Assembly (NCBI RefSeq): GCF_023008245.1
Contig: NZ_CP090145.1
Span: 620,001-684,000 of the forward strand
Length of the DNA: 64,000 nucleotides
From: Flavobacterium sediminilitoris
GTDB lineage: Bacteria; Bacteroidota; Bacteroidia; Flavobacteriales; Flavobacteriaceae
Direction of reading: 5' to 3'
Both the position numbers and the translations under genes were made by a program. Positions 973 to 18,949 of the stretch are shown here, piece after piece; position 1 is the stretch's first letter, and every line of letters starts with the position of its first letter. The notes below the pieces were generated by a model. It was not told where the DNA came from. It made no database searches and was given only the letters and a program-made list of their open reading frames with translations.

Positions 973-973
973 G

Positions 974-3215: not shown

Positions 3216-3220
3216 ATTTT

Positions 3221-4078
3221 CTATTTAAAATAAATGTTTAATTTCAAAATCTGCTTATTTTTTTTACTATAGATTGGCTCAAACCATTCACTAAACTCTT
3301 TATTATTTTGTGTTCTATATCGGAGAATTTCCTTTAACTGAAGTTTCTTTTTAACATTAACAGCTTTAAATTTAGGTTTAATAATGTTCTTGGATCCCAA
3401 ACTCACCTTATTTAGAAAGTCTATTATAACAAATACACCCTTCTCATCAAACAAAATCTCTTCATCTTTTAAAAATACTTTTATTTTTTTTGAAAATTTT
3501 TGATTAATTACTATTTCTTTAGTATTAAGCTTTTGAAAAGGAAGTAATAAACTATCAGCATTCCAAATCTCAACATTAAAACTTATTGAATCACTCTCTT
3601 TGACGTTTTTATTAACTAATTCAAAGAGAATACTCGATATCTTTAAATTAAAATCATCAGCATTATTTGGCAAATAAATACCTACCTGAAATTTCTCTGG
3701 ATAAGAAACTCCTGTATTAAAATTAATTCCTCTTCTATCATTTAAAGAATATTTAAAAGATTTAGGATTTGATTTTACAATTACTTCTTTTAAGTTAATA
3801 GAATTAGGTTGAAGAAAAACCACTAATGAATCTCTAATCATTTTTTTACAAATAATAACCTTAGACTTATAACCTATATGCGAAATAATCATAGTAGACT
3901 TTTCTTTGTCTGTTTTAATTATAACCTTACCATTTCCATCTGAAATAGAGACTTTATTTTCTTCATTAATTAAATGTACCCCTTCAATTGGACTAAAAGT
4001 AATACTATCTCTTATTATAAAAAAATCTTGACAAAAAAGTGATGAATAAAAAAATAAAAAAAATATTAATATTTTCAT
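3221..4078 (-). CDS. Exported protein with carboxypeptidase-regulatory-like domain, unknown function
   Basis: 285 residues, signal peptide MKILIFFLFFYSSLFCQ, then a regulatory-like beta-sandwich (RDSITFSPIEGVHLINEENK..SISDGNGKVIIK..ISHIGYKSK) at residues about 18-100. The C-terminal part is basic and of unknown function. It is a paralogue of the gene at 2244-3215, and the two are separated by only 5 bases. It follows the precursor gene at 4125-4370 after a hairpin at 4088-4120. Whether it belongs to the peptide system (for example as an immunity or surface protein) cannot be told from sequence. Confidence 0.6.
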   Translation of the reverse strand: MKILIFFLFFYSSLFCQDFFIIRDSITFSPIEGVHLINEENKVSISDGNGKVIIKTDKEKSTMIISHIGYKSKVIICKKMIRDSLVVFLQPNSINLKEVIVKSNPKSFKYSLNDRRGINFNTGVSYPEKFQVGIYLPNNADDFNLKISSILFELVNKNVKESDSISFNVEIWNADSLLLPFQKLNTKEIVINQKFSKKIKVFLKDEEILFDEKGVFVIIDFLNKVSLGSKNIIKPKFKAVNVKKKLQLKEILRYRTQNNKEFSEWFEPIYSKKNKQILKLNIYFK

Positions 4079-4087
4079 AGAAAAAGA

Positions 4088-4120
4088 TTGTAGTAGCTAT
4101 ATATAGCTACTACAATTAAA
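4088..4120 (-). terminator. Perfect palindrome, likely terminator/attenuator after precursor gene
   Basis: A 28-bp perfect palindrome (4088-4115; half-site TTGTAGTAGCTATA) sits between the stop of the precursor at 4125 and the gene at 4078. On the minus strand it is followed by TCTTTTTC, as in an intrinsic terminator. It may let the short precursor mRNA accumulate more than the downstream genes. Confidence 0.6.
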
Positions 4121-4124
4121 AATT

Positions 4125-4370
4125 TTATACACATCCAAATTCTGCACCAACTGGACAAGGACCTGTTGTCTGTTCCCAACTACCAACACCAATGCCTAAA
4201 AATGTTGGTCTAACTTCCCAAGTACACTCAAAAGCAGTAACTCCTCCGTTATACTCCATAATATTCCCTGTACACTGTACATTTCTAACTTTAATTCCAG
4301 CAACTACATTCTTTTGTTCAATTTTAGTTAAAACTTGAACTCCTTCTAAATCTAAAATTTGTTTTTTCAT
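4125..4370 (-). CDS. Secreted peptide precursor with AG-type leader, 4-Cys core
   Basis: 81 residues from the ATG at 4370; a longer frame to 4403 exists, but the shared leader MKKQILDLEGVQVLTK begins at 4370. The leader matches the seven other precursors in the island (KK.ILNL.G, then L.K.EQ). The processing site reads VVAG rather than GG, so cleavage after Ala-Gly is expected. The core of about 56 residues holds four cysteines (VQC, FEC, GPC, GCV) and is larger and more aromatic than its relatives. It lies directly downstream of the HlyD and ABC exporter genes. Function as a bacteriocin-like or signalling peptide is inferred from leader and context. Confidence 0.75.
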   Translation of the reverse strand: MKKQILDLEGVQVLTKIEQKNVVAGIKVRNVQCTGNIMEYNGGVTAFECTWEVRPTFLGIGVGSWEQTTGPCPVGAEFGCV

Positions 4371-4406
4371 GTTTATTTGTAATAAAAATTTAAAAATACT
4401 CAATCA

Positions 4407-4430
4407 TTTATACCAGTTGAGTCTCTGGCA
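4407..4430 (-). promoter_or_regulatory. Diverged copy of the precursor promoter box
   Basis: Upstream of the precursor at 4370 is an inverted repeat CCAGTTGAGTCTCTGG (4413-4428), followed on the minus strand by TATAAATGATTGAGTATT. It sits about where the AGTCA..TGACT boxes sit before other precursors, but only the inner part is similar. Weakest member of the set. Confidence 0.4.
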
Positions 4431-4490
4431 TTTAATACTTAAACGCAAATCAACATCTCTTATTGCCTACATAATAACAAATAACAATTA

Positions 4491-5837
4491 CTACTCATCC
4501 TTAACCACCTTAGATTTTCTTCCAAATACATCTCTAAACTGATAGAAGAATCGTTCTATTAATCGTAAATCTTCTGTTACAATGTCTGCTGTTCCTGTCA
4601 TTTCTTGCTGAAATATTATTTTCTTATCATAAGAAGTATCTAATCCGTTAGGTAGTGAAACATCAATTAATAAATTCCCTTCATTATCTGGTGTTGCCGA
4701 AATATTATGCACTTCTCCTTTTATGATTCCAAACTCTCTATCTGGAAAATTTGCTAGTCTAATATTTACAGGTTGACCTACTTTAATCTTTCCAGAATTT
4801 TGAGCTAACGCTTTAACCTTGCCTACATATACATTTTGCTCTACTGGCACAACAGAAAAAACTTGATCTCCAGCATTCACTGTTTGATTTTCTGCCCATA
4901 ATTGCAAAAAGGAAACCTTCCCTTTTATTGAAGTTCTTAATACATAATTTAATTCCCAATCTTTAATTGCTTTTTTCAATTGAAAAAAAGATTGAATTAC
5001 ATTTCGTTCTAAGTTAATAGCGTCTTTTGTAGAGTTAATAACTGTTGTTTGACTATTTCTATTTAACTCATTAAGAGATGACTTTAATTGAGATATTGAG
5101 CTTAATAAGTTTTTATAGTTTTTTTGTGACTGCAAGTATGCTAATTTTTGCTTTTCAAATTCTTGAGCAGCAATAACTCCTTTTTTATAGAGCTTTTCAT
5201 AACGATCCATATCGCTTTTTTGAAGCTCTAATTCCGATTGATTAATACTACTTTGTGATTCTAACAAAGATAAACGCTCACTTAATTGTCTAGCTTCAAA
5301 ACTTTGTGCTGATGTTTCAACCTGATAAGGTTTTAATTTTTTCTGTAATTCATCTGCACTATATTCCTTCTGAAAAATTGAATATTGACTTTCAATATCT
5401 CCTAATTGAGAAAATTTAATCTTCTCAAAAGGAAAAGGAGTTGTATTAATGTTTATGGTATCCATAATACTCTTCAGTACAAAAACATCTTTATAATTAG
5501 CCGAGTTTTCAATTACTGCTAATGGTGCGTGTTTTTCAAGAATATCATTGTCTTTTACTAAAATGGCTTCAATTCTTCCAGAAGTACGAGCCATTAATTT
5601 TTCTGGTGGTACTAATGTTGTAATTGTTATTTGAGTTGAATTAATATCTGGATATTTTATAAAATATGAAAACAACAATACTAGTAATAGGATTATTAGT
5701 ATTACCAAATTTCCCCATCTTATCATCCAATGTGGAATTCTAGTAAGAATTTCTTGCACTTGTTCACTTCTCAATTCCACTTCTTGGATTGGAAGGTTTG
5801 CATCTGAAGGTTGAGTATCTAAATTACTATTTGGCAT
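4491..5837 (-). CDS. HlyD-family membrane fusion protein of the peptide exporter
   Basis: 448 residues. Adaptor linking an inner-membrane ABC exporter to the outer membrane. One transmembrane helix at about residues 40-62 (WGNLVILIILLLVLLFSYF), a lipoyl-like half (SGRIEAILVKDNDILEKHAPLAVIEN), a long coiled-coil hairpin at about 160-270 (QLSERLSLLE..YEKLYKKGVIAAQEFEKQKLAYLQSQ) and the C-terminal beta-barrel (VYVGKVKALAQNSGKIKVGQPVNIRL). It lies 72 bases downstream of the C39 ABC transporter and is the natural partner of that protein. No outer-membrane TolC-like gene is visible in the island. Confidence 0.9.
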   Translation of the reverse strand: MPNSNLDTQPSDANLPIQEVELRSEQVQEILTRIPHWMIRWGNLVILIILLLVLLFSYFIKYPDINSTQITITTLVPPEKLMARTSGRIEAILVKDNDILEKHAPLAVIENSANYKDVFVLKSIMDTININTTPFPFEKIKFSQLGDIESQYSIFQKEYSADELQKKLKPYQVETSAQSFEARQLSERLSLLESQSSINQSELELQKSDMDRYEKLYKKGVIAAQEFEKQKLAYLQSQKNYKNLLSSISQLKSSLNELNRNSQTTVINSTKDAINLERNVIQSFFQLKKAIKDWELNYVLRTSIKGKVSFLQLWAENQTVNAGDQVFSVVPVEQNVYVGKVKALAQNSGKIKVGQPVNIRLANFPDREFGIIKGEVHNISATPDNEGNLLIDVSLPNGLDTSYDKKIIFQQEMTGTADIVTEDLRLIERFFYQFRDVFGRKSKVVKDE

Positions 5838-5909
5838 TTTATTTTTTTAATTTTTAAGAAATACTTTCAAAAAGCGTTGGCTATTAGCAATAAAAAGAAT
5901 TTACAATAT

Positions 5910-8102
5910 TTATGTTCCCAACTGCAATTGATTTTTCACCAATTCAAAGTAACTTCCTTTTTTAGCAATTAATTCTTGATGATTCCCTGTCTCAATGATC
6001 TTTCCTTTTTCTAAAACTACAATTTGGTCTGCATTTATTACCGTACTTAGACGATGCGCAATTACAATTACGGTTTTATCTTTAAAGAAAATATTTAGTT
6101 TTTCCATTATTTCTTTTTCATTATTTGAATCTAAAGCACTAGTGGCTTCGTCAAAAAACAACATTTCAGGATTTTTATAAACGGCTCTTGCTATTAAAAG
6201 TCTTTGTTTTTGACCTGTACTTATTCCTATTCCTTCTGTACCAATTTTTGTATTGTATCGAAGTGGATAATCATCAATAAAATCTTTAATATTGGCTACA
6301 TTTGCAGCATAATTTAATCGATCTTTATCAATTATATCAACGCCAATAGCAATATTATTTGCAATTGAATCGCTAAAGATAAATCCTTCTTGCATAACCG
6401 AACCTACATGATTTCTCCATGCTTTCTGAGATAGATTATTCAGAGACGACTTTCCTAATAGAATATCACCCTCACTAGGTTCATAGAATTTCAACAATAG
6501 TTTCATAAGAGTAGTTTTCCCACTACCACTTGTCCCTACAATTGCTGTGATCTTTTTTGCAGGAATAGTCATATTCAGCTCATGTAATACATTGGTATCT
6601 GATCCCATGTATCTAAATGACAAATCTTTTATAATAATATCTTCATCATTTGTAACTTCTGTCATTTTCTCTCTTTCATCTTGAACCTCATCGTCCATAT
6701 CGTGAATTTCTGACAGCCTAGCTAATGATATTTTAGCATCTTGCAATTCTCTAATAAAACTTATTAATTGAACAATTGGTCCATTTAAACTACCAACGAT
6801 ACTTGTTATCGCCATCATTTCCCCTATTGACAAATCGCCATTAATTACTGAAATTGCAGACAAGAAAATAATGAAAATATTTTTAAGCTCGTTTATAAAG
6901 TTTGAACCGATACTTTGTGTTTGTTCTAGCACTAATCCTTTTAAAGATACTTTAAAAAGTCGAGCTTGAATATATTCCCAACCCCATCTTTTTTGCTTTT
7001 CTGCATTATGAAGTTTTATTTCTTGCATTCCATTAATAAGTTCAATTACTTTACTTTGCTCTTGACTTACTTCTGAAAATCGTTTATAATCGAGAATTTC
7101 CCTTTGTTTTAAAAATAAAATTACCCAAAGAAAATACAAAAAACTTCCTACAAAAAACACTGCAAAAATACTCAAGTTATAATAGGCTAAAACTCCTCCC
7201 ATTATAATCATATTTATAAAAGAGAATAACACACTCAAAGACGAAGTGGTTAAAATTCTTTCTATTCTATGGTGATCATTTATCCTTTGCATAATATCTC
7301 CTGTCATTTTCACATCAAAATAAGAAATAGGGAGATTCATTAATTTGATGAAGAAATCAGAAATTAATGAAATATTAATACGGGTTGATAAATGGAGTAA
7401 TATCCAACTTCTAATAAGCTCTAATGCGGTTTTACCAAAAAACAAAAATAATTGCGCTAAAAGCACTAGATATATAAAGTGAATATTTTGATTTTGGATT
7501 CCAACGTCAACAACACTCTGCGTTAAAAATGGAAAGATAAGTTGTAACAAACTACCTGCAAATAATCCTATCGCAAGTTGAACAATAAATGATTTATACT
7601 TTAAGACATATTTTGATAATATCCCGAAACCGTATGCTTTCTTTTCTTCTAAATCAAATTCAGATTCAAAGAAATTAGGAGTTGTTTCTAATAATAAAGC
7701 AATCCCTTCTTCTGTTTTTCTATCTGCATTATTCCCTATCCAAAATTTTAGAAATTCTTTTTCGGTATATTCTATTAATCCTATTGCTGGATCAGAAACA
7801 TAGTACTTCCCTTTTTTAATTTTGTATAATACTACATAATGATTATTGTTCCAATGTAATATACAAGGTAATGGCGCTTCTTCTATCTTCTCAAGAGATA
7901 TTTTAACGCCTAATGAGCGAAAACCAATTTGTTCAGAAGCATCACTAAGAGTAAGTAAATTACTCCCTTCTCGTGTGGTTTCTGAAAGTTCTCGTAATTT
8001 TTGAGTATTAAGTGTTCTACCGTAATGTTTAGCTATTATCTTTAAGCATGTAGGCCCACAGTCTTTGCTTTCTGTCTGTGTATAATGAGGAAATTTTTTC
8101 AA
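5910..8102 (-). CDS. Peptidase-containing ABC transporter (C39 domain) for GG-leader peptides
   Basis: 730 residues in the classical three-part order. Residues 1-135 are a C39 cysteine peptidase with catalytic Cys15 (DCGPTC), His88 (NNHYVV) and Asp104 (SDPA). Residues about 165-440 form the membrane domain. Residues about 490-730 are the ATPase with Walker A GTSGSGKT (523-530), signature ISTGQ (627-631, a variant of LSGGQ), Walker B LFFDE (to 652) and H-loop His683. Such proteins cut the leader after a double glycine while exporting the peptide. All catalytic residues are present. The eight GG/AG precursors in the island are the obvious substrates. Confidence 0.95.
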   Translation of the reverse strand: MKKFPHYTQTESKDCGPTCLKIIAKHYGRTLNTQKLRELSETTREGSNLLTLSDASEQIGFRSLGVKISLEKIEEAPLPCILHWNNNHYVVLYKIKKGKYYVSDPAIGLIEYTEKEFLKFWIGNNADRKTEEGIALLLETTPNFFESEFDLEEKKAYGFGILSKYVLKYKSFIVQLAIGLFAGSLLQLIFPFLTQSVVDVGIQNQNIHFIYLVLLAQLFLFFGKTALELIRSWILLHLSTRINISLISDFFIKLMNLPISYFDVKMTGDIMQRINDHHRIERILTTSSLSVLFSFINMIIMGGVLAYYNLSIFAVFFVGSFLYFLWVILFLKQREILDYKRFSEVSQEQSKVIELINGMQEIKLHNAEKQKRWGWEYIQARLFKVSLKGLVLEQTQSIGSNFINELKNIFIIFLSAISVINGDLSIGEMMAITSIVGSLNGPIVQLISFIRELQDAKISLARLSEIHDMDDEVQDEREKMTEVTNDEDIIIKDLSFRYMGSDTNVLHELNMTIPAKKITAIVGTSGSGKTTLMKLLLKFYEPSEGDILLGKSSLNNLSQKAWRNHVGSVMQEGFIFSDSIANNIAIGVDIIDKDRLNYAANVANIKDFIDDYPLRYNTKIGTEGIGISTGQKQRLLIARAVYKNPEMLFFDEATSALDSNNEKEIMEKLNIFFKDKTVIVIAHRLSTVINADQIVVLEKGKIIETGNHQELIAKKGSYFELVKNQLQLGT

Positions 8103-8141
8103 AATTTGTTTATAGTTTTTACAAAAATAATTAAAAAAAGC

Positions 8142-9824
8142 TTAATTAACTCCTATATCTTTTAACAATAATTCTTTGTTTTCTTTATTTTTAATAACAA
8201 GAAAAAAATTACCTTTAGGAACATCCACAATAACTTTAGAACCTACAACTTTTTTTATTCTACTTATAATTGGGATGCTTCTTGAACTATATTTATAGTA
8301 CTCTTTTGCATCATAAAAATTCATAAGTACTTCTTGCCCTTCTACTTCTTTAAGAACAAGATCGCTTATTGTAATTTCAGTTAAATTGGAAAATTCAGAA
8401 AAAGAAGGTTTTATATTATTAATCAAAAAATAGTCAACATTACAGTTAACCTTTTCAACATCGAGAAATATTTTTGATTCAAAAAACAAAAGTTCATTAG
8501 GTATATCTGAAACAATTTCAACTTGATCAATCGTTAAAGGGTCTATCCCTGTTTTTTCTTTAAAAAAAGCAGCCATTCTTTTAGTTGAAATACTATCTCC
8601 TTTTTCTAAAATATGATCTATTCCTGCGTAAACAAAAACTTTTGCAGAAGAATCTCGATCAATTATATGTTTCAAATTTTCAGCTTGCGTTTCTTCTCTA
8701 TTTATACTTTCAAAATCGTCATAGCCTACTATTTTAAATCCTAGAGCACATGCCTCCCTAATAAAGTTACTAAAAAAAGGCTCCCTTGTATAGTAGCCCG
8801 AAGTCTTTATTGCAAATTTCCTACTGTTTATTAAGCTATCTTGCCCTTTATCTAAGGCCTCAATAGCTAAATGAGTATATCCGTTTTCCTTCAAAGGTTT
8901 TAACAAACTAGTAGCAAACACTCTATGTTCAGGTTTCCAATGCATTTCATTGAGCATTAAAACCTTATAATTTTTAGAAGCTTCAGCTATCATGCTTATT
9001 ACAGCTTCCTTTTTTTGATTATCCTCTCTTTTTAATAAGCTGTTTTTTTTATCTTTTAATAAATCATTAAAAAAAATGCTTCTCTTACTTTCAAATTTTT
9101 TAATTAATTCTTTGTACCTATAATATTCTGTATCGAATGACAAAATTGTAGTTAATAATTGAAATTTTGTCCATTCATTTTTTGGATCTTTACTAATGGG
9201 AGCGCTATCAAGCTTATTCATTACAAATAAATAGTTATCATCATTTTTATATGAATTAAATATATCCATATAATTTGGAGTATTCTTTTCATGAATACTA
9301 AATTCCATTGAGTCAACTATACTTTTACCATCTTGCAAGATCGATTTATTTGATTTGTGTTTTCCAATACTTTTAATGGCTACAAAAAATGATTGAATAC
9401 CATTAGATTTTTCATATAAAACTAAATTATTACTTGTATCATCTACTAATAATTTAGTTGTTACTTGTGAAGGTTTATCCTTCAATTTAGATTTCTTTTT
9501 TTTAAAAAAAACATACAATTGATAAAGAGGACTTTCAGTTGTCTTACCATAAACTAATAAATCTTTATCCCGAAGTTTATAAAATGCTAAAACAGAAGAG
9601 ACCTCATCCATTTGATCTACTTCATTTGTTTCGTAATACTTAACATCACCAAAAAAATGTCCGCTAACATTTAAAGGGTAATTATAAAATTCTGTGCCAC
9701 TAAAATAATTAAACTTTCTGTTCTTTTTAACTGTGTTACACGATAATATTAAAGTACACACAACAAGAACCAATATACTATTTCCAAGTGTTTGTTTTAG
9801 GGTCATAACTACATAGGCTTTCAT
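8142..9824 (-). CDS. Lipoprotein with ChaN/Tiki-like domain, role in island unknown
   Basis: About 560 residues. The frame is open to 9896, but the lipoprotein signal (SILVLVVCTLILSC) fits a start at 9824 or 9806 better. The middle part holds LNEMHWKPEHRVFATSLL, THLAIEALDKGQ, GFKIVGYDDFES and VFVYAGIDHILEKG. Their order and spacing of Glu/His/Asp resemble the EreA/ChaN/Tiki superfamily (metal- or haem-binding proteins, some of them proteases or esterases). The assignment is by eye and tentative. The N-terminal 250 residues are of unknown type. The gene sits 40 bases upstream of the exporter and downstream of a thioredoxin-like lipoprotein, so a periplasmic role in peptide maturation or self-protection is possible. 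Confidence 0.5.
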   Translation of the reverse strand: MKAYVVMTLKQTLGNSILVLVVCTLILSCNTVKKNRKFNYFSGTEFYNYPLNVSGHFFGDVKYYETNEVDQMDEVSSVLAFYKLRDKDLLVYGKTTESPLYQLYVFFKKKKSKLKDKPSQVTTKLLVDDTSNNLVLYEKSNGIQSFFVAIKSIGKHKSNKSILQDGKSIVDSMEFSIHEKNTPNYMDIFNSYKNDDNYLFVMNKLDSAPISKDPKNEWTKFQLLTTILSFDTEYYRYKELIKKFESKRSIFFNDLLKDKKNSLLKREDNQKKEAVISMIAEASKNYKVLMLNEMHWKPEHRVFATSLLKPLKENGYTHLAIEALDKGQDSLINSRKFAIKTSGYYTREPFFSNFIREACALGFKIVGYDDFESINREETQAENLKHIIDRDSSAKVFVYAGIDHILEKGDSISTKRMAAFFKEKTGIDPLTIDQVEIVSDIPNELLFFESKIFLDVEKVNCNVDYFLINNIKPSFSEFSNLTEITISDLVLKEVEGQEVLMNFYDAKEYYKYSSRSIPIISRIKKVVGSKVIVDVPKGNFFLVIKNKENKELLLKDIGVN

Positions 9825-10109
9825 GAAAATACTTCTCATCCTTTTGAACAGGAATTCTATTATCAGGACAAATATATCTAAATTCGCAAAAATCATCCAG
9901 ATTAATCACTAAATCATTAATACTCCTAATTTGCCCTAACAAAAATTCATTACAATTACCTAAATAAAAATTAATCTATTGGTTATTAGAAATTATTTCT
10001 TTAAAAGCAGGTTTGTAAAAGTTCTTAAATCTCATTTTCTGAATTTGATAGGAATCTAGAATTACAAGAATTAAATTAATATTTTTTATAGATTGACTTA
10101 ACGTTCAAA

Positions 10110-11603
10110 TTAATCTTCAAGATATTTATTTAATTCCTTAATTATTTCATCGCTATCTGGACCTGGTGCATTACTATTAACCAACTCTCCTTTTTTATTA
10201 TAAATCAAATACCTTGGAATTGTCTTAAGTGCCTTTTCCTTATAAAAATTAGCTTCTGGGTAATTGATTGCTAAAAAGCTATTCTCACTTACACCTTCTT
10301 TATTCATAGCTTTTTGCCAAGCTTCAAAACTATTATCTATACTTATATATAGAAATACAACTTCTTTACTTTTATATTGTTCTTTTATTTTCTTTGAAGC
10401 AGGCATTGCTTTTCTACATGGAGCACACCAACTTGCCCAAAAATCTATATATATAACCTTATTTCTATTTTCAATTAATAATTTATCAAGATTAACTTTT
10501 AATTTCATAGGGTCTGATAATTCTACTTCACTTGAATTCTTATCATTTTTTTTCAAAAAATAATCTTTCTCTATTTTCGAAATATATAAATCATAATTAG
10601 TATTAATCTTATTTTTTTTATAATTATTAATTAATTCATTAATTGACTCTTTACTATGTCCTTCATCTATAGCTGCTTTTATACAAACAATTTGAGAAAA
10701 TGCTAAATTATCCCCTTTAAAATAATTTGGCAAAAGGGACATCGCTTTTTTATAATCAATAATAATTTTATGTCCTAATGATTTTTTTTTATTTTCTAAC
10801 AATATTGAATTTATTAATCTATAAATAATTTGATAACTATAGTTATCCTCAAAAAGTCCTTCATTAATAAACCTATTTGAAATCAAAAACTTTTTAGCTT
10901 CATCATTCAATGAGAAATTATAAATAGTAATAGCTTCAGAAAAACAATCTATTTTTAGATTTTCCTTCAATTGTTCAATATAGTTTCTTTTTAAAGGCTT
11001 TTTTTCTGCTATAGAATCATAATAGCGATAACCATTAATCAAATCATTTTTAATTACCTCTATCAAATTATTAACTCCATTAACGTCCGTTTTTATTTTA
11101 TTAAAATCTACTTTAACTGGATATAGAGGTTTTCTTTTTTCATATTCACTAGGTTCAATTTCTAAAGGATAATCTTTAGACACCTCTATATAGTTTAATT
11201 TTAACTCATTTATTTTATTCGTTTTTTTATACTTTTTTATATCAAACAAATTTTTATTAGAAGAAATTTCGTTCTTTTCATTCTTTAAATCTATAAAAAT
11301 AGTGTCTCCATTAGCTACAAAAACAGTATCACGGTAATTATATTTTGTACAAAAATATAATTGTTTTCCTTTACCTACATTAAGCCTAATAGTATCATTT
11401 TCTTTATCTGTAAAATAGTGATTCTTATTATTCAAATTATTAGATGTTAAATCTTCAAATATTGAAGTAATAATATTTGTTTTATTTTCTTTTACTATAA
11501 AAACAGCATATTCTGTATTTTGTTTTTCTAGATTTTGAACTCTTAATTCTTTTTTTTCCTTACAAGAATTAAATACTAAAATTAAGATTAAGAAGTAGCG
11601 CAT
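10110..11603 (-). CDS. TlpA-like thioredoxin-domain lipoprotein
   Basis: 497 residues with a lipoprotein signal (MRYFLILILVFNSCKEKK). The C-terminal about 130 residues are a TlpA/ResA-type thioredoxin fold with the active site FWASWCAPC (Cys393, Cys396) and cis-Pro region KTIPRYLIY. The preceding about 350 residues are alpha-helical and Lys/Asn-rich and match nothing I recognise. Probably faces the periplasm as a disulfide reductase or isomerase. It lies between a Cys-containing precursor (11670) and the exporter, which suggests quality control of peptide disulfides; that link is inference. Confidence 0.85.
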   Translation of the reverse strand: MRYFLILILVFNSCKEKKELRVQNLEKQNTEYAVFIVKENKTNIITSIFEDLTSNNLNNKNHYFTDKENDTIRLNVGKGKQLYFCTKYNYRDTVFVANGDTIFIDLKNEKNEISSNKNLFDIKKYKKTNKINELKLNYIEVSKDYPLEIEPSEYEKRKPLYPVKVDFNKIKTDVNGVNNLIEVIKNDLINGYRYYDSIAEKKPLKRNYIEQLKENLKIDCFSEAITIYNFSLNDEAKKFLISNRFINEGLFEDNYSYQIIYRLINSILLENKKKSLGHKIIIDYKKAMSLLPNYFKGDNLAFSQIVCIKAAIDEGHSKESINELINNYKKNKINTNYDLYISKIEKDYFLKKNDKNSSEVELSDPMKLKVNLDKLLIENRNKVIYIDFWASWCAPCRKAMPASKKIKEQYKSKEVVFLYISIDNSFEAWQKAMNKEGVSENSFLAINYPEANFYKEKALKTIPRYLIYNKKGELVNSNAPGPDSDEIIKELNKYLED

Positions 11604-11620
11604 TATTTTAATTAAGTATT

Positions 11621-11648
11621 AAAAAAGCTCTATTCTAAGATAGAGCTT
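11621..11648 (-). terminator. Intrinsic terminator after precursor 11670-11906
   Basis: Stem AAGCTCTAT / ATAGAGCTT with a 6-base loop, followed on the minus strand by a run of T (11621-11626). It lies between the precursor and the thioredoxin-like gene. Confidence 0.8.
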
Positions 11649-11669
11649 CTAGTTAGATTTATTTATAAG

Positions 11670-11906
11670 TTAAGAAGCACAGCTTGAACAGCAATATCCT
11701 GAAGCATAACTTCCATCATTATACACAAATCCATTCCATTGTGACTGGGCTTGTTCTAAAGACACATTTACAGACCAGTATCCTGGACCTCCTCCTGCTG
11801 GTCTTATGTAAAGCCTACAAGGTTCTGCTTTTCCTCCAATAACATTTCTTTGTTGTTCTTTTGCTAAAGCAACAACCCCTTCTAAATTTAAAATTGTTTT
11901 TTTCAT
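11670..11906 (-). CDS. GG-leader secreted peptide precursor, 4-Cys core
   Basis: 78 residues. Leader MKKTILNLEGVVALAKEQQ ends NVIGG at residue 25. The core of 53 residues (KAEPCRLYIRPAGGGPGYW...) has four cysteines, three of them in a cluster near the C-terminus (CCSSC). It has its own upstream box (11946-11992) and a terminator (11621-11648), so it is a one-gene transcription unit, as expected for an abundant small peptide. It is predicted to be cut and exported by the C39 transporter. Biological activity is unknown. Confidence 0.85.
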   Translation of the reverse strand: MKKTILNLEGVVALAKEQQRNVIGGKAEPCRLYIRPAGGGPGYWSVNVSLEQAQSQWNGFVYNDGSYASGYCCSSCAS

Positions 11907-11945
11907 TTTTAAAAAAATTAATACTAATAATTAATTATCCAAACC

Positions 11946-11992
11946 TTTTAAGTCAGTTGAATTTCTGACTACTCCTGCAAGAATATTTTAAT
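11946..11992 (-). promoter_or_regulatory. Conserved precursor promoter box
   Basis: Inverted repeat AGTCAGTTGAATTTCTGACT (11951-11970) with flanks matching the boxes at 12646 and 17643: on the minus strand an AATATT-N-TTG block, then TAGTCA..., then TGACTTAAAA. It ends about 40 bases before the precursor ATG at 11906. Probably a promoter with an overlapping activator or repressor site. Confidence 0.65.
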
Positions 11993-12137
11993 TGTGAATT
12001 TAAATTCCAAAACATCTATTTCAGAATATTTCTGTTTTTTAACAAAAAATACAATAAAACAATAATACAAAAAAATACACTACTTGTATTACAGTTTTTC
12101 TGCCGTTATTGTTAAATAAATAATCTGGAATAGAAAA

Positions 12138-12162
12138 AATTAGGGAGAAAATCTCCCTAATT
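12138..12162 (-). terminator. Intrinsic terminator after precursor 12171-12347
   Basis: Perfect stem AATTAGGGAGA / TCTCCCTAATT with a 3-base loop, then TTTTTC on the minus strand, 9 bases past the precursor stop codon. Confidence 0.85.
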
Positions 12163-12170
12163 AAGATAAT

Positions 12171-12347
12171 CTAGAACAATGGCTCTATTTCAATGAATCT
12201 ACAATATAACTGTGCGCAATGTCTGCCTACTTGTTCGCAAACTTTATCACCGTTAACGTCACAATTGTACAATCCTCCTTTTATAGATTTTTGTTCATTT
12301 TTTGATAATTCTTGAGCTCCGCTCAAAGTTAAAATTGATTGTTTCAT
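12171..12347 (-). CDS. GG-leader secreted peptide precursor, 58 residues, 4-Cys core
   Basis: Found by reading the minus strand from the ATG at 12345-12347. Leader MKQSILTLSGAQELSK then NEQKSIKGG (cut after residue 25). The core of 33 residues starts LYNCDVNGDKVCEQVG and ends at a TAG at 12171; it has four cysteines. It is followed at once by a terminator, and an inverted repeat TTGTCAATTGTTTTGACAA lies upstream. Clearly a paralogue of the other precursors by its leader. Confidence 0.85.
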   Translation of the reverse strand: MKQSILTLSGAQELSKNEQKSIKGGLYNCDVNGDKVCEQVGRHCAQLYCRFIEIEPLF

Positions 12348-12386
12348 GTTATATTTATTTTAATTGTTTTTATTTCTACTACGTTT

Positions 12387-12405
12387 TTGTCAATTGTTTT
12401 GACAA
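12387..12405 (-). promoter_or_regulatory. Precursor promoter box (core only)
   Basis: Inverted repeat TTGTCAATTGTTTTGACAA, sharing the GTCAA..TTGAC core with the boxes before the precursors at 11906, 12610 and 17603. It is about 40 bases upstream of the ATG at 12347. Confidence 0.5.
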
Positions 12406-12421
12406 ATTTGTTGCTTATAGA

Positions 12422-12610
12422 TTAATATCCTCTATCGCAAGCTGCCCAACTACATCTTCCCCATTGATTTCTACATGTATTGAAACCACAACCATCTTCT
12501 CCTGGTCCATCTCCTCCACCTGGATTAAATACTTTTCCACCCGCAGTTTCTTTAAGCTCTTCTTTTGTTAAAATTTGAGCTCCTTTTAAATTTAAAATTG
12601 ATTTTTTCAT
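12422..12610 (-). CDS. GG-leader secreted peptide precursor, 4-Cys core
   Basis: 62 residues. Leader MKKSILNLKGAQILTK then EELKETAGG; cleavage predicted after residue 25. The core of 37 residues begins with a Gly/Pro-rich stretch (KVFNPGGGDGPGEDGC) and has four cysteines. Well-matched box upstream at 12646-12693, which begins right at the stop codon of the VKOR-thioredoxin gene. Confidence 0.85.
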   Translation of the reverse strand: MKKSILNLKGAQILTKEELKETAGGKVFNPGGGDGPGEDGCGFNTCRNQWGRCSWAACDRGY

Positions 12611-12645
12611 AATAAATCGGTTTTTGAATTGTTTCTACTACAAGC

Positions 12646-12693
12646 GTTTTTAAGTCAATTGTAGTTTTTGACTATTATTGCAATAATATTTTT
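12646..12693 (-). promoter_or_regulatory. Conserved precursor promoter box
   Basis: AGTCAATTGTAGTTTTTGACT (12653-12673) flanked on the minus strand by an AATATTATTGCAATAA block before it and TTAAAAACG after it. About 40 bases upstream of the ATG at 12610 and touching the stop codon of the upstream gene (12692-12694). Confidence 0.65.
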
Positions 12694-14227
12694 AAACCAA
12701 AATAGGTTGTAATTCTTCTTCTAATTCTGAAATAAAATACTTTACTTCTTCAATATCATATTCGCCTGGAAATAATTTGCTGTTCAATAATTTTACAGGT
12801 GTATAATTAAAATTATTATCTGAGCACCATTCGTATTGTTCTCTAATTATTTGTACTATATTAGAATCTTTCTTTTTTTGTTCCCATTTTTCTTTCCAGT
12901 CTTCTAAACTCATCTTTTTTATGTGCCAATCGGAAATAGCTTCCACTATTTTTTCTGGCATATTTTCATTAATTTGAAGAATGCTTTCAACAATTGAGAG
13001 GTAAGGATTATCTTTATTATCTGGATTTAAATTGAAAAACACTGTCAATCTTACCTTATTTAAACTTGAGTTTACTAATTCTAATCCGTTTTCAAATGCT
13101 GTATGGCAAAAAGAACAACTTGGACTTAAAATCAAGGTTAGGTTTACAGATGCATTTTTATTTCCTATTTCAACTTTTGTTAAGGCCTTTAATCTTTGTT
13201 CGTTCACGATCTCTTTTTGCAATGATTTAAAAACAGTATAGTTTCTTTTAAATTTAATAAGCTCAATATTTTTCTTTTGCAATTCTACTCTTTTAAATAA
13301 TATTGGTTTCCAAAAAAACCAAATAGGAACCATTACTAAAAGCACATTTGTTATTGACAACAAATTCCATGTTAGTGGTTGATTAACAATAAAAAACAAA
13401 GCAGCTTGTATTATTAATAAGGATGAAATACCCAAGCATAGAACACACCATTTTTTCAATTTACTTTGTTGAAGCCAAATGGAGTATAGAATAATAGGAA
13501 GAGAAAGAACACTTAAAAAATTAATTAGTTTTAAATTACTTTCATCTATTACAATAAGAAGAGCACTAACACTAAAAAACAAAATTGGTAAATCTGAAAA
13601 GTCTAACCATTTTGTGATTTTCGCATTCTTAGATTTTATTACAGAATCACAAGATGTCTTTTCGCTAAAAGAGCAAATTTTTGAGATAGCTCCGTCTAAT
13701 GTATTTAATTTTTCATCGACTATAAGCACACTGATTAAAACTCCTATTAATATAATTCCAAAATTAAATATGGAAATTAGTCCATTCATTTGTTCCATTT
13801 TAATCACAAAAAGAGAAAACAAAATTAAAACGAGTAAAACATATTTACTTTTAAATAGGCTTAATCTCTTTCTTTCTAGTTTAACACCTTGTTCAATAGC
13901 AATTACAACACCATTCCATTTGTTCAAGAAATCATCTGTAGATACTTTCTTTTTTCCTTCTTTTTCTTTCTCAACTGCGATTTCATTATTCTGCTTTGTA
14001 ACTAAGGTTATGTCATCATTAAATACTGCTAAAAATGAGTTAGGCAATTCTGGAAATTGTTCTTTTGGAACTTTAGCTGCTACATTTTCTATAGAAAGCA
14101 TGTCTAATGTATCCGTTATTGCAAATAAGCTTGGATAATTAGGGTGAGATAAAAACAAATTTTCAAAATCATTTTGCTTTTTATCGTAGTTATTAATCTT
14201 TAAATACTTTTTAATAATTGCCTTCAT
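12692..14227 (-). CDS. VKOR-thioredoxin fusion with inactive C39-like N-terminal domain
   Basis: 511 residues. Residues about 1-115 resemble a C39 peptidase fold (PSLFAITDTLDML..IENVAAKV..NSFLAVFNDDITLV) but have no cysteine and so no protease activity. Residues about 125-310 are a membrane vitamin K epoxide reductase domain: four or more helices, loop cysteines Cys185 and Cys193 (CSFSEKTSC) and the active CxxC WCVLC (261/264). Residues about 360-511 are a DsbA/thioredoxin-like domain with CSFC (371/374). Such fusions make disulfide bonds de novo using quinone. Placed among eight precursors with even Cys counts, it is the likely oxidase for the exported peptides. The C39-like part might hold leaders as a substrate-binding module (inference). 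Confidence 0.88.
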   Translation of the reverse strand: MKAIIKKYLKINNYDKKQNDFENLFLSHPNYPSLFAITDTLDMLSIENVAAKVPKEQFPELPNSFLAVFNDDITLVTKQNNEIAVEKEKEGKKKVSTDDFLNKWNGVVIAIEQGVKLERKRLSLFKSKYVLLVLILFSLFVIKMEQMNGLISIFNFGIILIGVLISVLIVDEKLNTLDGAISKICSFSEKTSCDSVIKSKNAKITKWLDFSDLPILFFSVSALLIVIDESNLKLINFLSVLSLPIILYSIWLQQSKLKKWCVLCLGISSLLIIQAALFFIVNQPLTWNLLSITNVLLVMVPIWFFWKPILFKRVELQKKNIELIKFKRNYTVFKSLQKEIVNEQRLKALTKVEIGNKNASVNLTLILSPSCSFCHTAFENGLELVNSSLNKVRLTVFFNLNPDNKDNPYLSIVESILQINENMPEKIVEAISDWHIKKMSLEDWKEKWEQKKKDSNIVQIIREQYEWCSDNNFNYTPVKLLNSKLFPGEYDIEEVKYFISELEEELQPILV

Positions 14228-14494
14228 ATAATAAAAAATGAACTAATCATTTGATTAATTTGATAAGACAAATATGGAAGTAAAAAAGAGTTAAAAAAAA
14301 GGGGTTTACATATAATTTATAAATTATAACATAAACAATTTATAAATTATGAAAGGCAAAAAATACATTCAACAGACTAAAAAACAACCCATTAAACGTT
14401 AATTAATATTTATTAGTATCAAAAAATGAAATACCCTTCTTAGAGCTAAAAATAAAAGTAACTTTGATACTTATTAACTATAAAAACATATTTT
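14228..14494. other. Intergenic region between divergent genes
   Basis: AT-rich 267 bases between the VKOR fusion (minus) and a small plus-strand peptide gene. Contains two copies of AATTTATAAATTAT (around 14310 and 14337) that could pair. No clear -7/-33 promoter pair was found by eye. Confidence 0.4.
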
Positions 14495-14695
14495 ATGAAA
14501 ATTCAACCTTTTTTTTTAGATCAATTTATAGCAGACAAAATCCCTTCTCATCAATTAATTAAAATTATAGGAATGGGTGATCCTAGGCCTCCTAAAAAAC
14601 CAATTCTTACAGATACTGTATCTAGTGAAGATAATGGTGATGGTAAACCTAAAGATGATGATATTATTATTTTAGATACTATTATTTTAGACTAA
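14495..14695 (+). CDS. Small peptide gene, possible RiPP precursor with PFFLDQF leader
   Basis: 66 residues, the only plus-strand gene in the island. It begins MKIQPFFLDQFIADKIPSHQ and ends with an acidic, Thr/Ser/Asp-rich tail (ILTDTVSSEDNGDG..DDDIIILDTIILD) with no cysteine. The PFFL..F start recalls the PFFARFLE leader motif of microviridin-type (graspetide) precursors, and the acidic hydroxy-rich tail could suit ester cross-links. No ATP-grasp ligase is visible in the window, so this is a weak suggestion. The last 9 bases overlap the convergent regulator gene. Could also be a non-RiPP small protein. Confidence 0.45.
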   Translation: MKIQPFFLDQFIADKIPSHQLIKIIGMGDPRPPKKPILTDTVSSEDNGDGKPKDDDIIILDTIILD

Positions 14696-16417
14696 TTCGT
14701 CTTTCTCTATTTTTTTAATAAATTGAACAGGTGTAACGCCTGTTCTTTTATTAAAAGATTTTGCAAAGGAAACAGCATTTTTAAATCCTACTGTTTCAGC
14801 AATAGCTTGTGTGGAGTATTTTCTAAAGGTAGCATTTGTTATCATTTGTTCTATAGCATAATTTATTTTCAATTCATTTGAATATTCGCTAAATGATTTT
14901 TCAAACCTTTTATTAACGACATACGATAAATAAGTAGTATTTGTTTTTATCTTTTTTGCAGTGCTTTGCAGATTAAAGTCTTCTCTTAAAAAATAATTTG
15001 CTTTTTCAAGTTGAATTAATTTTGCCACTATTTCATTTTCTTTCTCTTCATCGATACTCAGTGAATTATTGTTTATTACAACCTCCTCACTATCTTTTTC
15101 ATCATTAACAACTATTGAATCTTTCTTTTGTTTAAACTCTTCTATAAGTTTATTCACTTTTATATGAGCTGCTTTTTTTGCTTTATAATTTTTATATAAA
15201 AAATAAATCAATCCACAGAAAATAGATACAATTAAAACCTTTGAAAACAAAAGAAGGGACTTCTTTTGCTTAATTTCATTTTTAAGAATATTTAAATCTT
15301 CTTTTATTTCTGCATTTGCAATAATATTATTGACTTTAAGTGTTTCTTCTGCTATTAAATTCTCATTTTCTTTAAACTTGTCTTTATAAATGGCTAAATA
15401 TTTTTCTGCTTTACCGTAATCATCATATTCGTTATGAATTTTAGCCAAATAGTACATAGAATTTGTAAGTTCTATTTTATTGGTTTCATGATTGGATAAT
15501 GAATCTACTTTATTGAAATAAATTAGAGCTTTGTCATATTTTCTTTTCCCATAATTAACATAGCCTAGGTTATAGTATAATGTAGTTATAGGAGTTGTAA
15601 AGTTGTTTTGTTGCGCCAGTACTAAAGACGCTAAATATTGTTTCTCTGCACTAATTAAATCTGATTTTTTTACATAGATATTTCCTAAATTAATCTGAGC
15701 TTTTAATTTTCTATCTAATAAGTTTTTAGAGTAAATAATCGTTTTTTTATAATATAACTCTGAGGAATCTAATAAGGTTGGCTTTTTATTAACACTATAA
15801 TAGGCTTCATAAAAAGAGCCTAACTTCATGTATACACTGCTTTTTGCTTTTAAAAAACTCTCTTTTTCGTATAAGTATTTTATCTTGTCTGTAATACTAT
15901 CTGATTCTTTTACAGATTTAATGGCTAATTCAAAATTACCAACTTGAGCTAATATTAGTGCCATATTGTTTGAGCATTTTACTGCTAAAACTTTATCATC
16001 AACCTCAATGGCTAGCCTTTTAGCTTCCTTATAGGCATTAATAGCATCGCTTAATTTTTTCCTTTTCCAATTTATCAATCCTTTAAAATTAAGCAGTTTA
16101 CTTTTTGCTTTCTTTTTTACAAATGGAGCATTAATTTTATCTAAATATAAGAGTGAAGTTTCAAAAGAATTATTAGAATTTAAAGTATCTGAATATTCTT
16201 TTAATTGATATAAATAAGCTTCAGATGCAAATGCGTAAGTAAGTTGTTCTGCTTCTTTTGATAATTTTATTTTATTTACATAATAAAAAGCACTGTCTAG
16301 ATTTCCGTTTATATGAAAACTTACTTTATCTTGATATTTCAAGAAATCATCATTACTAAGTTTCTGTGCAACAACTGCTTGAACTACAAAAAAAATCAAA
16401 AAAAGTATTTTATTCAT
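14687..16417 (-). CDS. Membrane-anchored TPR protein with C-terminal AraC-type DNA-binding domain
   Basis: 576 residues from the ATG at 16417, which begins a good signal peptide (MNKILFLIFFVVQAVVAQ); an in-frame ATG at 16438 is less likely. TPR-like helices fill residues about 25-365, followed by one membrane helix (LLLFSKVLIVSIFCGLIYFLY), a charged linker and an AraC/XylS HTH pair (STQAIAETVGFKNAVSFAKSFNKRTGVTPVQFIKKI). This plan (periplasmic TPRs, cytoplasmic AraC domain) is common in flavobacteria for sensing exported or external signals. Similar to the gene at 23644-25338. It lies between two groups of precursors and may control them. Confidence 0.85.
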   Translation of the reverse strand: MNKILFLIFFVVQAVVAQKLSNDDFLKYQDKVSFHINGNLDSAFYYVNKIKLSKEAEQLTYAFASEAYLYQLKEYSDTLNSNNSFETSLLYLDKINAPFVKKKAKSKLLNFKGLINWKRKKLSDAINAYKEAKRLAIEVDDKVLAVKCSNNMALILAQVGNFELAIKSVKESDSITDKIKYLYEKESFLKAKSSVYMKLGSFYEAYYSVNKKPTLLDSSELYYKKTIIYSKNLLDRKLKAQINLGNIYVKKSDLISAEKQYLASLVLAQQNNFTTPITTLYYNLGYVNYGKRKYDKALIYFNKVDSLSNHETNKIELTNSMYYLAKIHNEYDDYGKAEKYLAIYKDKFKENENLIAEETLKVNNIIANAEIKEDLNILKNEIKQKKSLLLFSKVLIVSIFCGLIYFLYKNYKAKKAAHIKVNKLIEEFKQKKDSIVVNDEKDSEEVVINNNSLSIDEEKENEIVAKLIQLEKANYFLREDFNLQSTAKKIKTNTTYLSYVVNKRFEKSFSEYSNELKINYAIEQMITNATFRKYSTQAIAETVGFKNAVSFAKSFNKRTGVTPVQFIKKIEKDELV

Positions 16418-16462
16418 ATTAATCTTATATGCTCTCAAAGGTATAATATAAATTAAAACTAC

Positions 16463-16513
16463 AAAAAAAAGATGCTCTCAAAAAACCAATCAAATGATTT
16501 TCTAAAAGCATCT
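16463..16513 (-). terminator. Intrinsic terminator after precursor 16546-16704
   Basis: Outer arms AGATGCT / AGCATCT enclose a longer imperfect stem (AAAATCATTTGATTGGTTTT); followed on the minus strand by TTTTTTTT. Separates the precursor array from the regulator at 16417. Confidence 0.75.
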
Positions 16514-16545
16514 AAAAATTAATACGATCCTTATTTATAACTAAA

Positions 16546-16704
16546 CTAAACCCAATCTGGATCTTTTTTACATCCTACTTTTGTGCAAAATAATCCTGGA
16601 GGACAACCATCTATTGCACAAACGTGTATTCCACCTTTAATGGTTTTTTGTTCTTTTTGAGATAATACTTGTACATCTCTCAAATTTAATATTGATTTTT
16701 TCAT
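16546..16704 (-). CDS. GG-leader secreted peptide precursor, 52 residues, 4-Cys core
   Basis: Read from the ATG at 16702-16704. Leader MKKSILNLRDVQVLSQ then KEQKTIKGG (25 residues). The 27-residue core begins IHVCAIDGCPPGLFC and ends KKDPDWV; four cysteines. It starts 8 bases after the stop of the precursor at 16713 and ends before the terminator at 16463-16513, so it is the last gene of a three- or four-precursor transcript. The smallest member of the family. Confidence 0.85.
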   Translation of the reverse strand: MKKSILNLRDVQVLSQKEQKTIKGGIHVCAIDGCPPGLFCTKVGCKKDPDWV

Positions 16705-16712
16705 CTCATTTT

Positions 16713-16907
16713 TTATACTGGATAAATTTCACACAAATGTCCAAGAGTTCCTATTCTATAGCATATTCCGCCTGAACAACATTCATTAGAACCACAACCA
16801 TAATTTGGCAAACTTAAAACACAAACTCTTTTTCCTCCATTAATGGTTCTTTGCTCTTTTTTAGTTAGCTGTTGAGCTCCTACTAAATTTAAAATTGATT
16901 TTTTCAT
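16713..16907 (-). CDS. GG-leader secreted peptide precursor, 6-Cys core
   Basis: 64 residues. Leader MKKSILNLVGAQQLTK then KEQRTINGG; cut after residue 25. The core KRVCVLSLPNYGCGSNECCS... has six cysteines (C, C, CC, C, C), the pattern of a compact disulfide knot. Lies 20 bases downstream of the precursor at 16928 and 8 bases before the one at 16704. Confidence 0.88.
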   Translation of the reverse strand: MKKSILNLVGAQQLTKKEQRTINGGKRVCVLSLPNYGCGSNECCSGGICYRIGTLGHLCEIYPV

Positions 16908-16927
16908 AATTTATATGATGTTAAATT

Positions 16928-17140
16928 TTAACAATTATCACCAATTACAGAACATTTTCTAGTAGCAGGATTCCATATTGGGTCGTATCCTACCAAGCTT
17001 AAGCACTGAGACTCTGTAGAGTTGAAAACTAAAGCGCCACATAAGTTGCTTAAGTCTGGAATTTTACCACCCTGTATCATTTTTTGCTCTGATTGAGACA
17101 ATTTTTGAGTTCCTGATAAATTTAAAATTTTATTTTTCAT
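16928..17140 (-). CDS. GG-leader secreted peptide precursor, 4-Cys core
   Basis: 70 residues. Leader MKNKILNLSGTQKLSQ then SEQKMIQGG. The 45-residue core has four widely spaced cysteines (LC, QC, KC and a terminal C). First gene of the three-gene precursor run 17140-16546. A partial GTCAA..TTGTC element lies about 25-50 bases upstream (17166-17190), weaker than the other boxes. Confidence 0.85.
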   Translation of the reverse strand: MKNKILNLSGTQKLSQSEQKMIQGGKIPDLSNLCGALVFNSTESQCLSLVGYDPIWNPATRKCSVIGDNC

Positions 17141-17420
17141 GATCTATTTTTATTTTTTTATTTGTTGTCAATTTTAGAACATTTTTGTCCCCTAAATTTT
17201 ATATTAAACGATGTATTCGATGTGAAAAAATCTGATTCAGAGTAACCCATTGAATGAAATTATTTAAAAACATCAGGCCGAGTGTTTTTTTGCACAGTAA
17301 AATGGAACAAAACTTCTCAACACATTTCAAAACTTTACATTTTAACAAAAAGACATTGAATATAAATAATTTAATACTTTTTTATATCGAACTCGTTTTT
17401 TTAGATTTCACCTCCAATTA

Positions 17421-17603
17421 TTAAAGCCCACATGCACTTACACAGCACTGTACTGTATCGCAATTTTTCTTAAAAACGCCATTACAATAACATGGAAAAG
17501 AAGCTCCTATAGGATCTGTTACTCTTAGTCCTCCTACAATTTCTTTCTGTGTTTTCTTTGACAATTCCTGAGCTCCTACTAAATTTAAAATTGATTTTTT
17601 CAT
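17421..17603 (-). CDS. GG-leader secreted peptide precursor, 6-Cys core
   Basis: 60 residues. Leader MKKSILNLVGAQELSK then KTQKEIVGG. The 35-residue core LRVTDPIGASFPCYC... has six cysteines with CYC and QCC pairs near the C-terminus. One of the best promoter boxes of the set lies upstream (17643-17690). It is separated from the precursor run at 17140 by 280 bases of AT-rich DNA, so it probably has its own transcript. Confidence 0.88.
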   Translation of the reverse strand: MKKSILNLVGAQELSKKTQKEIVGGLRVTDPIGASFPCYCNGVFKKNCDTVQCCVSACGL

Positions 17604-17642
17604 GATGCTAATAATTTAAAAAATGATTATTATCCCAAGATT

Positions 17643-17690
17643 TTTTAAGTCAACTGAGATTTCTTGACTATTGCTACAACAATATTTTTT
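17643..17690 (-). promoter_or_regulatory. Conserved precursor promoter box
   Basis: AGTCAACTGAGATTTCTTGACT region (17648-17669), flanked on the minus strand by an AATATTGTTGTAGCAATAG block before it and TTAAAAAATCTTGGGATAAT after it. About 40 bases upstream of the ATG at 17603. Together with 11946-11992 and 12646-12693 it defines a box of about 45 bases. Confidence 0.65.
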
Positions 17691-18083
17691 ATTCTAATTT
17701 TTAACTCTATAAAAAACCGTCAGTTTCGAGTATTTTCACTTTATTTTATAAAGCAAAAATGCGAGAAGAACGTTTAACCATTTTCATTTATCTTATCACA
17801 ATTCTTTAAAAGAATTACTCGAATTGACGAAAATTATAACTAAAAAAATTCAAGTATCCAACATATTATCTATTGGTAATCTACTTGTTTTTGTTGTAAA
17901 AATGTTCTTTTAACTAACTTTAAAAAAGAAATACAACGTTCACAATACTACAAAAAATATCTGACTCACAATTACAACTTTGTTGCCGAAATTGTTAAAA
18001 TAACAGAACAATAATCTAAATATTAATCATTTTAATGTTAAAAACACCAAATTAAAGTTATTCTTATAAAAATAAAAACTTAC
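17691..18083. other. Gene-free region with degraded palindromic repeat
   Basis: 393 AT-rich bases between the dehydratase C-terminal gene and the 6-Cys precursor's promoter box. At about 17718-17835 it has a worn copy of the dispersed repeat (CAGTTTCGAGTATTTTC ... TTACTCGAATTGACG). Nothing else recognised. Confidence 0.45.
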
Positions 18084-18944: not shown

Positions 18945-18949
18945 TTTTC

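What the first reader, a model, noticed from the sequence alone, without database searches (positions are those of the whole stretch)
4125..17603. Eight-member family of exported Cys peptides around one C39 exporter
Seen: eight short genes (4125, 11670, 12171, 12422, 16546, 16713, 16928, 17421) share a leader of about 25 residues (KK.ILNL.GAQ.L.K, then EQK.I.GG) but have unrelated cores. Known: C39 ABC transporters cut after GG and export. Inference: a toolkit of bacteriocin-like or signalling peptides served by one exporter (5910-8102) and one HlyD (4491-5837), with diversification of cores and conservation of leaders.
Basis: partly seen in the sequence, partly recalled or inferred. Interest (0 to 1): 0.75.

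Follow-up and report, generated by a model that had tools for sequence, protein, structure and literature searches.

The report
Exported cysteine-peptide arrays with RNA knot
A Flavobacterium chromosome carries a set of small, probably exported and disulfide-bridged peptides that share a secretion leader, an exporter and a fused disulfide-making enzyme, and many such peptide genes begin with a conserved RNA pseudoknot that may tie the scattered genes into one regulated set.

Summary
The eight leader-sharing peptide genes are real, and all eight cores have an even number of Cys. The genome holds 17 more orphans of the kind, so "eight" undercounts. One relative has 22 such peptides in one locus. 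The split LanB beside the window's array is not part of the module (1 of 86 loci). Two further findings. (1) Many of the peptide genes carry an H-type RNA pseudoknot ending mostly 25-29 nt before the start codon, with strong compensatory changes and no Rfam match; whole-genome hits in other genera precede a GG-leader peptide in 20 of 22. (2) In 64 of 68 loci holding both genes, a Cys-free GG peptide lies antisense between the fusion gene and a membrane TPR-AraC regulator, often in tandem copies: a candidate pheromone and receptor. Export and disulfides are inferred; antimicrobial activity, the pseudoknot's effector and the pheromone role are untested. Closest known system: bacteroidetocins.

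The parts
4125..4370 (-). Leader + Cys-core peptide 1 (4 Cys)
4491..5837 (-). HlyD-type membrane fusion protein
   Evidence: Pfam PF13437 over cut-off
5910..8102 (-). C39 peptidase-ABC exporter (DCG and HW..H motifs present)
   Evidence: Pfam; motif count
10110..11603 (-). Thioredoxin-like protein (lipoprotein by eye), possible accessory; relatives in 6 of 86 loci including this one
11670..11906 (-). Leader + Cys-core peptide 2 (4 Cys)
11925..11972 (-). H-type RNA pseudoknot before peptide 2
   Evidence: model R1; covariation (this copy is one of the 77 sequences)
12171..12347 (-). Leader + Cys-core peptide 3 (4 Cys, no Ser/Thr in core)
12422..12610 (-). Leader + Cys-core peptide 4 (4 Cys)
12626..12675 (-). 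H-type RNA pseudoknot before peptide 4
   Evidence: model R1, (training copy)
12692..14227 (-). Fusion: C39-like domain without catalytic motifs + VKOR + DsbA-like; six conserved redox Cys
   Evidence: Pfam C39 21.7 bits (cut-off 22), 23.9; VKOR and Thioredoxin_4 over cut-off
14495..14695 (+). 66-aa Cys-free divergent ORF in the slot of the antisense GG peptide (this copy has GMG, not GG, and is not found by the profile)
14687..16438 (-). TPR - membrane helix - AraC HTH regulator
16546..16704 (-). Leader + Cys-core peptide 5 (4 Cys)
16713..16907 (-). Leader + Cys-core peptide 6 (6 Cys)
16928..17140 (-). Leader + Cys-core peptide 7 (4 Cys)
17421..17603 (-). Leader + Cys-core peptide 8 (6 Cys)
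17621..17671 (-). H-type RNA pseudoknot before peptide 8
   Evidence: model R1, (training copy)

Best explanation
A secretion locus for a diversified family of disulfide-bridged peptides. Precursors carry a ~25-residue GG leader. The C39 exporter with HlyD cuts after GG and exports the core (inferred from catalytic motifs and linkage). A fusion protein whose dead C39 domain probably grips the leader in the cytoplasm carries a VKOR and a DsbA domain that oxidise the even-numbered Cys of the core (inferred from architecture and Cys parity). Many of the peptide genes, in arrays and as orphans, begin with a shared H-type RNA pseudoknot in the 5' UTR that most likely serves as a common post-transcriptional operator (structure supported by covariation; transcript and effector not shown). 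In most of the Flavobacterium loci a Cys-free GG peptide made on the opposite strand next to a membrane TPR-AraC regulator is probably a pheromone read by that regulator's TPR domain (inferred). The Cys peptides are most likely competition peptides of bacteroidetocin-like use (inferred, weakest step).
Confidence: 0.68

Rival explanations
1. The peptides are class I lanthipeptide precursors modified by the split LanB at 18084-21124.
For: LanB N and C halves lie about 480 bp from the array; cores contain Cys and most some Ser/Thr; weak L1b leader similarity of one peptide (E 0.77). One other-genus locus also has a LanB pair beside the fusion (L227).
Against: LanB pair in 1 of 86 loci of the first set and 1 of 20 other-genus loci. 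The genome's only two LanC genes lie elsewhere, beside their own full-length LanB and precursors that pass the L1a leader cut-off. One window core and 13 of 299 cores have no Ser/Thr. None of the eight window peptides passes any NCBIfam cut-off.
Confidence: 0.07
2. The conserved upstream element is a DNA operator (two interleaved inverted repeats bound by a protein, perhaps the TPR-AraC regulator), not an RNA pseudoknot.
For: Stem 1 is a perfect dyad; it sits close to a possible -7 box; a shared regulator is in most Flavobacterium loci.
Against: The element, which is asymmetric through stem 2, points with the gene in 105 of 105 R1 hits in the 81 loci (77 of its copies trained the model). G-U pairs are common in stem 2, which a DNA repeat would not favour. 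It occurs in other-genus loci where no regulator was found; the antisense peptides beside the regulator lack it (0 of 177 by the dyad pattern; 5 of 177 by the strict descriptor).
Confidence: 0.15
3. The antisense Cys-free peptides are not signals but a second class of exported effector or an immunity/decoy peptide.
For: They share the leader class and so probably the exporter; tandem copies, up to 7; NCBI calls one relative 'rSAM-modified peptide'.
Against: Fixed place between fusion and regulator; no relative of the genome's two radical-SAM-like proteins in the 86 loci; correlation with the regulator's periplasmic part.
Confidence: 0.3

Closest known systems
Bacteroidetocins (class IIf bacteriocins, Coyne et al. 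2019, PMC6671954; passages read)
   Same: Bacteroidetes GG-leader peptides with 4 Cys, a GG-peptidase ABC exporter and a thiol oxidoreductase in one locus; activity and leader removal shown there.
   Different: Leaders there 15-16 aa and four-gene regions with a separate oxidoreductase; here ~25 aa leaders, 1-22 peptides per locus, a dead-C39/VKOR/DsbA fusion, a pseudoknot, and in Flavobacterium an antisense peptide and TPR-AraC regulator.
Class II microcins and other PCAT substrates (recalled; PCAT1 and ComA peptidase folds met)
   Same: GG leader, C39 peptidase-ABC exporter, HlyD partner.
   Different: Dedicated disulfide fusion and RNA element; activity untested.
Bacteroidales RiPP clusters of Fernandez-Cantos et al. 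2023 (PMC10352776; passages read)
   Same: Most clusters there have C39 transporters and GG precursors; TPR-domain genes lie in two clusters and the authors already suggest regulation after pheromone binding.
   Different: Those clusters are rich in radical-SAM enzymes; no relative of the genome's two radical-SAM-like proteins was found in the loci here; no divergent Cys-free peptide, VKOR fusion or RNA element is mentioned in the passages I saw.
RRNPP peptide-pheromone receptors (Rap, NprR)
   Same: TPR superhelix linked to gene control with a short peptide gene beside it (fold matches; family knowledge recalled).
   Different: Here the TPR part is predicted outside the inner membrane (signal-like start and later membrane helix, by eye), joined to an AraC-type HTH; the peptide has a GG leader.
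preQ1-I / SAM-II type H-pseudoknot riboswitches (recalled)
   Same: Small 5' UTR H-type pseudoknot with an A-rich third loop.
   Different: No Rfam match on the element in the three searches run; different genes; ligand unknown.

Membership tests
C39/PCAT-exported double-glycine peptides | Conserved leader ending in GG or similar | tested here: met
   (seven of eight end GG, one AG); in the 81 loci the leader as cut by the profile ends GG in 210 of 299, then NG 20, KG 14, LG 13, AG 9 and others
C39/PCAT-exported double-glycine peptides | Exporter in the locus with C39 catalytic motifs | tested here: met
   Cys motif 72 of 73, His motif 73 of 73
C39/PCAT-exported double-glycine peptides | Cleavage after GG and secretion | not testable with these tools
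   needs mass spectrometry
Bacteroidetocins | 15-16 aa leader | tested here: not met
   leaders 25 aa; length of theirs from passages
Bacteroidetocins | four-gene region with separate TM protein and thiol oxidoreductase | tested here: not met
   oxidoreductase is one fusion protein; their region as described
Bacteroidetocins | antibacterial activity | not testable with these tools
Class I lanthipeptides | LanB and LanC in the cluster | tested here: not met
   LanB pair adjacent but the genome's only two LanC hits lie at 2.31 and 2.81 Mb; LanB in 1 of 86 loci
Class I lanthipeptides | Ser/Thr and Cys in every core | tested here: not met
   13 of 299 cores without Ser/Thr; window peptide 12171
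TIGR04149 rSAM-modified RiPP | score over cut-off and a radical SAM enzyme in the locus | tested here: not met
   scores below cut-off; no relative of two radical-SAM-like proteins of the same genome in 86 loci (a different radical SAM could be missed)
Any Rfam 15 RNA family | covariance-model match on the element | tested here: not met
   window 3000-19000 at E<=5 (4 matches, none on the element); L065 and L086 at E<=1 (0); four other-genus loci at gathering (0)
RRNPP receptors | cytoplasmic TPR receptor of re-imported peptide | tested here: inconclusive
   TPR fold found; sequence has a signal-like N-terminal helix and a later hydrophobic stretch by eye; topology not measured

The most novel reading that the evidence does not exclude
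A new class of small cis-acting RNA (an H-type pseudoknot near the mRNA 5' end, possibly a riboswitch or a protein-bound operator) coordinates a genome-wide regulon of exported disulfide peptides across Flavobacteriaceae, and in Flavobacterium this arsenal is further gated by a peptide pheromone sensed outside the inner membrane by a one-piece TPR-AraC receptor. I found no description of the RNA or of such a receptor in the searches; a TPR-pheromone link in Bacteroidales RiPP clusters has been suggested in print (PMC10352776).
Probability: 0.4. Interest if true: 0.88.

Novelty: new variant of a known kind. Interest (0 to 1): 0.74.

Why it matters
It gives a large, mostly unnamed family of small secreted Cys peptides a shared leader, exporter, disulfide machine and RNA signature, so they can be found in Flavobacteriaceae genomes and tested. 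If the pseudoknot is a regulated element it is a new RNA class with a very clean gene association; if the antisense peptide is a pheromone, it is a directly testable quorum-sensing system in a phylum where, to my knowledge, few are known.

Tried and rejected
Lanthipeptide reading: rejected as above. Radical-SAM modification: no relative of the genome's two radical-SAM-like proteins in the 86 loci. First reading of the upstream element as a simple operator dyad: a pattern search of the own genome gave 5 hits against 0 for the reversed pattern; three precede GG peptides and two lie inside other ORFs; this led to the pseudoknot. In the 81 loci the dyad occurs 92 times in 1.64 Mb and its reversed form 80 times, but upstream of same-strand peptides 78 against 1. 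By eye a variant pseudoknot may precede peptide 4125 (around 4399-4429, minus strand), but R1 with filters off does not report it at E<=10, so it is not claimed. Upstream -7 box: exact TAnnTTTG in 2 of 77, TA-N3-TTG ending 7-9 nt before stem 1 in 19 (consensus from passages of PMC9723704): weak. Nearest NCBIfam models (leader_Chryseo, lant_leader_L1b, TIGR04149, lactococcin G types) stay below cut-off. Literature listings that showed no paper on this locus, fusion or RNA: (0 papers); passages read only in PMC6671954, PMC10352776, PMC9248904 and PMC9723704.

Limits of counts: the search for related loci kept 80 of 130 confirmed relatives (78 loci); with the window and seven other loci this is 86, of which five duplicates (told by equal contig lengths) were dropped, leaving 81. 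Contig or flank ends cut some loci, so absence of regulator or exporter there may be artefact. The 105 R1 hits in the 81 loci include the training sequences. The other-genus set was found with a model that scores stem-2 pairing, so its pairing percentage leans upward. In one search I gave 20 of the 40 fusion-bearing genomes and 20 of the 259 without a fusion match.

Full report
Setting. The window is 620001-684000 of a 3.91-Mb single-contig genome.

Observation. The eight ORFs, their strand, the exporter and HlyD are as described. The leader is conserved (7 invariant of 25 columns) and the cores are not (mean identity 59% and 27%). The leader start pattern occurs 5 times in the window and never in 100 shuffles. 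In the whole genome the leader profile, built from the eight, returns them and 20 further hits at E<=1; reading the ORFs gives 17 further leader-plus-Cys peptides at scattered places, some in small groups. Dropped were L026, L033 and the lanthipeptide precursor L034 (3 Cys). The 25 cores kept have an even number of Cys (8 of 8 and 17 of 17).

The module. I collected 86 loci: the window, seven from relatives and 78 found by the fusion protein; five are duplicates, leaving 81. Relatives of the exporter are in 78, HlyD in 75, the fusion in 86 (the selection) and the TPR-AraC regulator in 73 of 86; split LanB only in the window. An iterated leader model gives 522 ORFs at E<=1e-3 and none in reversed ORFs. 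In the 81 loci these split by strand: 299 on the strand of the fusion, present in 81 of 81 loci, with even Cys in 294; and 177 on the other strand in 61 loci, Cys-free in 175. After removing similar cores the even count is 152 of 156; spurious ORFs with two or more Cys give 261 of 388. One relative carries 22 same-strand peptides. The fusion occurs in 40 of 299 family genomes, 37 of 236 genera. Twenty loci from other genera show at least one leader peptide in 20 of 20, exporter in 16, HlyD in 15, LanB pair in 1 and no regulator hit; 43 of their 50 profile hits have even Cys, seven odd (counted).

The pseudoknot. Upstream of peptide genes the dyad AGWCA-N9..13-TGWCT stands in 78 of 299 same-strand and 0 of 177 antisense genes; four altered patterns gave 0 to 4 of 299. 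Bases inside its loop pair with a stretch behind it. A strict descriptor is met by 96 of 299 same-strand and 5 of 177 antisense upstream regions, against 0, 2, 9 and 1, 0, 0 in three block shuffles each; stem 2 ends mostly 25-29 nt before the ATG. It is found mainly where the gap to the previous peptide gene is long: 61 of 121 genes with more than 250 nt or no upstream peptide gene, 21 of 42 at 90-250, 13 of 74 at 60-90, 1 of 62 below 60. In 77 sequences chosen by stem 1 alone, stem 2 is 93.9% paired with changes on both sides in 6 of 7 pairs; 0 of 500 shuffles reach the observed cells paired, cells changed on both sides, pair types or score (19 of 500 reach the number of pairs changed); slid partners pair 21-43%. 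A model of it (R1) finds 6 places in the own genome at E<=10, each directly before a GG-leader peptide, one of them Cys-free; three are window training copies, three are not. In 101 Flavobacterium genomes 16 have hits, 42 in all. I read 32 of these 42 and the weak sixth own-genome hit: 31 of 33 are followed by a leader-bearing ORF (one, L179, lacks GG), one stretch ends there (L178) and one shows no such ORF (L186) (several are training copies). In the 20 other-genus loci, not used for training, 25 hits at E<=1: 22 precede a leader-bearing ORF (20 with GG, one GQG, one AG), two precede decayed copies and one only a short ORF. Stem 2 there has other sequences and is 97.1% paired in 24 sequences, 5 of 6 pairs changed on both sides (leaning upward, as R1 scores that stem). 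Genome-wide, 8 of 20 chosen genomes with the fusion and 0 of 20 without have hits; 20 of 22 hits precede a GG peptide with Cys, one a decayed copy, one an M56-like ORF (name by eye) (some places repeat). Rfam 15 has no match on the element. R1 marks 46 of 81 loci and 3 of the window's 8 peptides. Stem 1, loop 1 and the A-rich loop 3 are conserved while stem 2 varies, so recognition probably lies there (inference).

Verdict.

Noticed in passing
window 18084-21124 (-): Split lanthipeptide dehydratase (C and N halves as two genes) with no LanC near; its substrate is unclear. In L227 a LanB pair lies beside the fusion with a LanC-like ORF near (name by eye).
   Followed up: partly
G000:C1 2.31 Mb (L002/L034) and 2.81 Mb (L001): Two class I lanthipeptide loci of the same genome: L1a leaders, LanC and full-length LanB.
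   Followed up: partly
L073 (G000:C1:2665000-2684900): Second C39 exporter beside two ORFs with radical-SAM-like CxxxCxxC starts (by eye): probably a separate peptide system.
   Followed up: no
L155 (G000:C1:415180-415228, -): The best-scoring pseudoknot of the genome precedes a Cys-free 83-aa GG peptide unlike the array members.
   Followed up: partly
L074 (G000:C1:3888000-3907900): Second C39-like/VKOR/DsbA fusion with a thioredoxin-like ORF but no C39 exporter beside it.
   Followed up: partly
window 8142-9896 (-): 584-aa ORF, lipoprotein-like by eye, without Pfam match; relatives in 3 other loci (L085, L087, L144).
   Followed up: no
window 76-2233: A penicillin-binding-protein-like and a RodA/FtsW-like ORF flank the locus; similar ORFs flank L221. 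The seven relatives' loci instead lie beside an acyl-CoA-dehydrogenase-like ORF (names by eye).
   Followed up: no
window 21229-21270 and 21445-21486: Direct repeat of a TCGAGAAGT-type sequence near the LanB pair.
   Followed up: no
L071, L103, L107: Antisense Cys-free peptides in five or six tandem, closely similar copies.
   Followed up: partly
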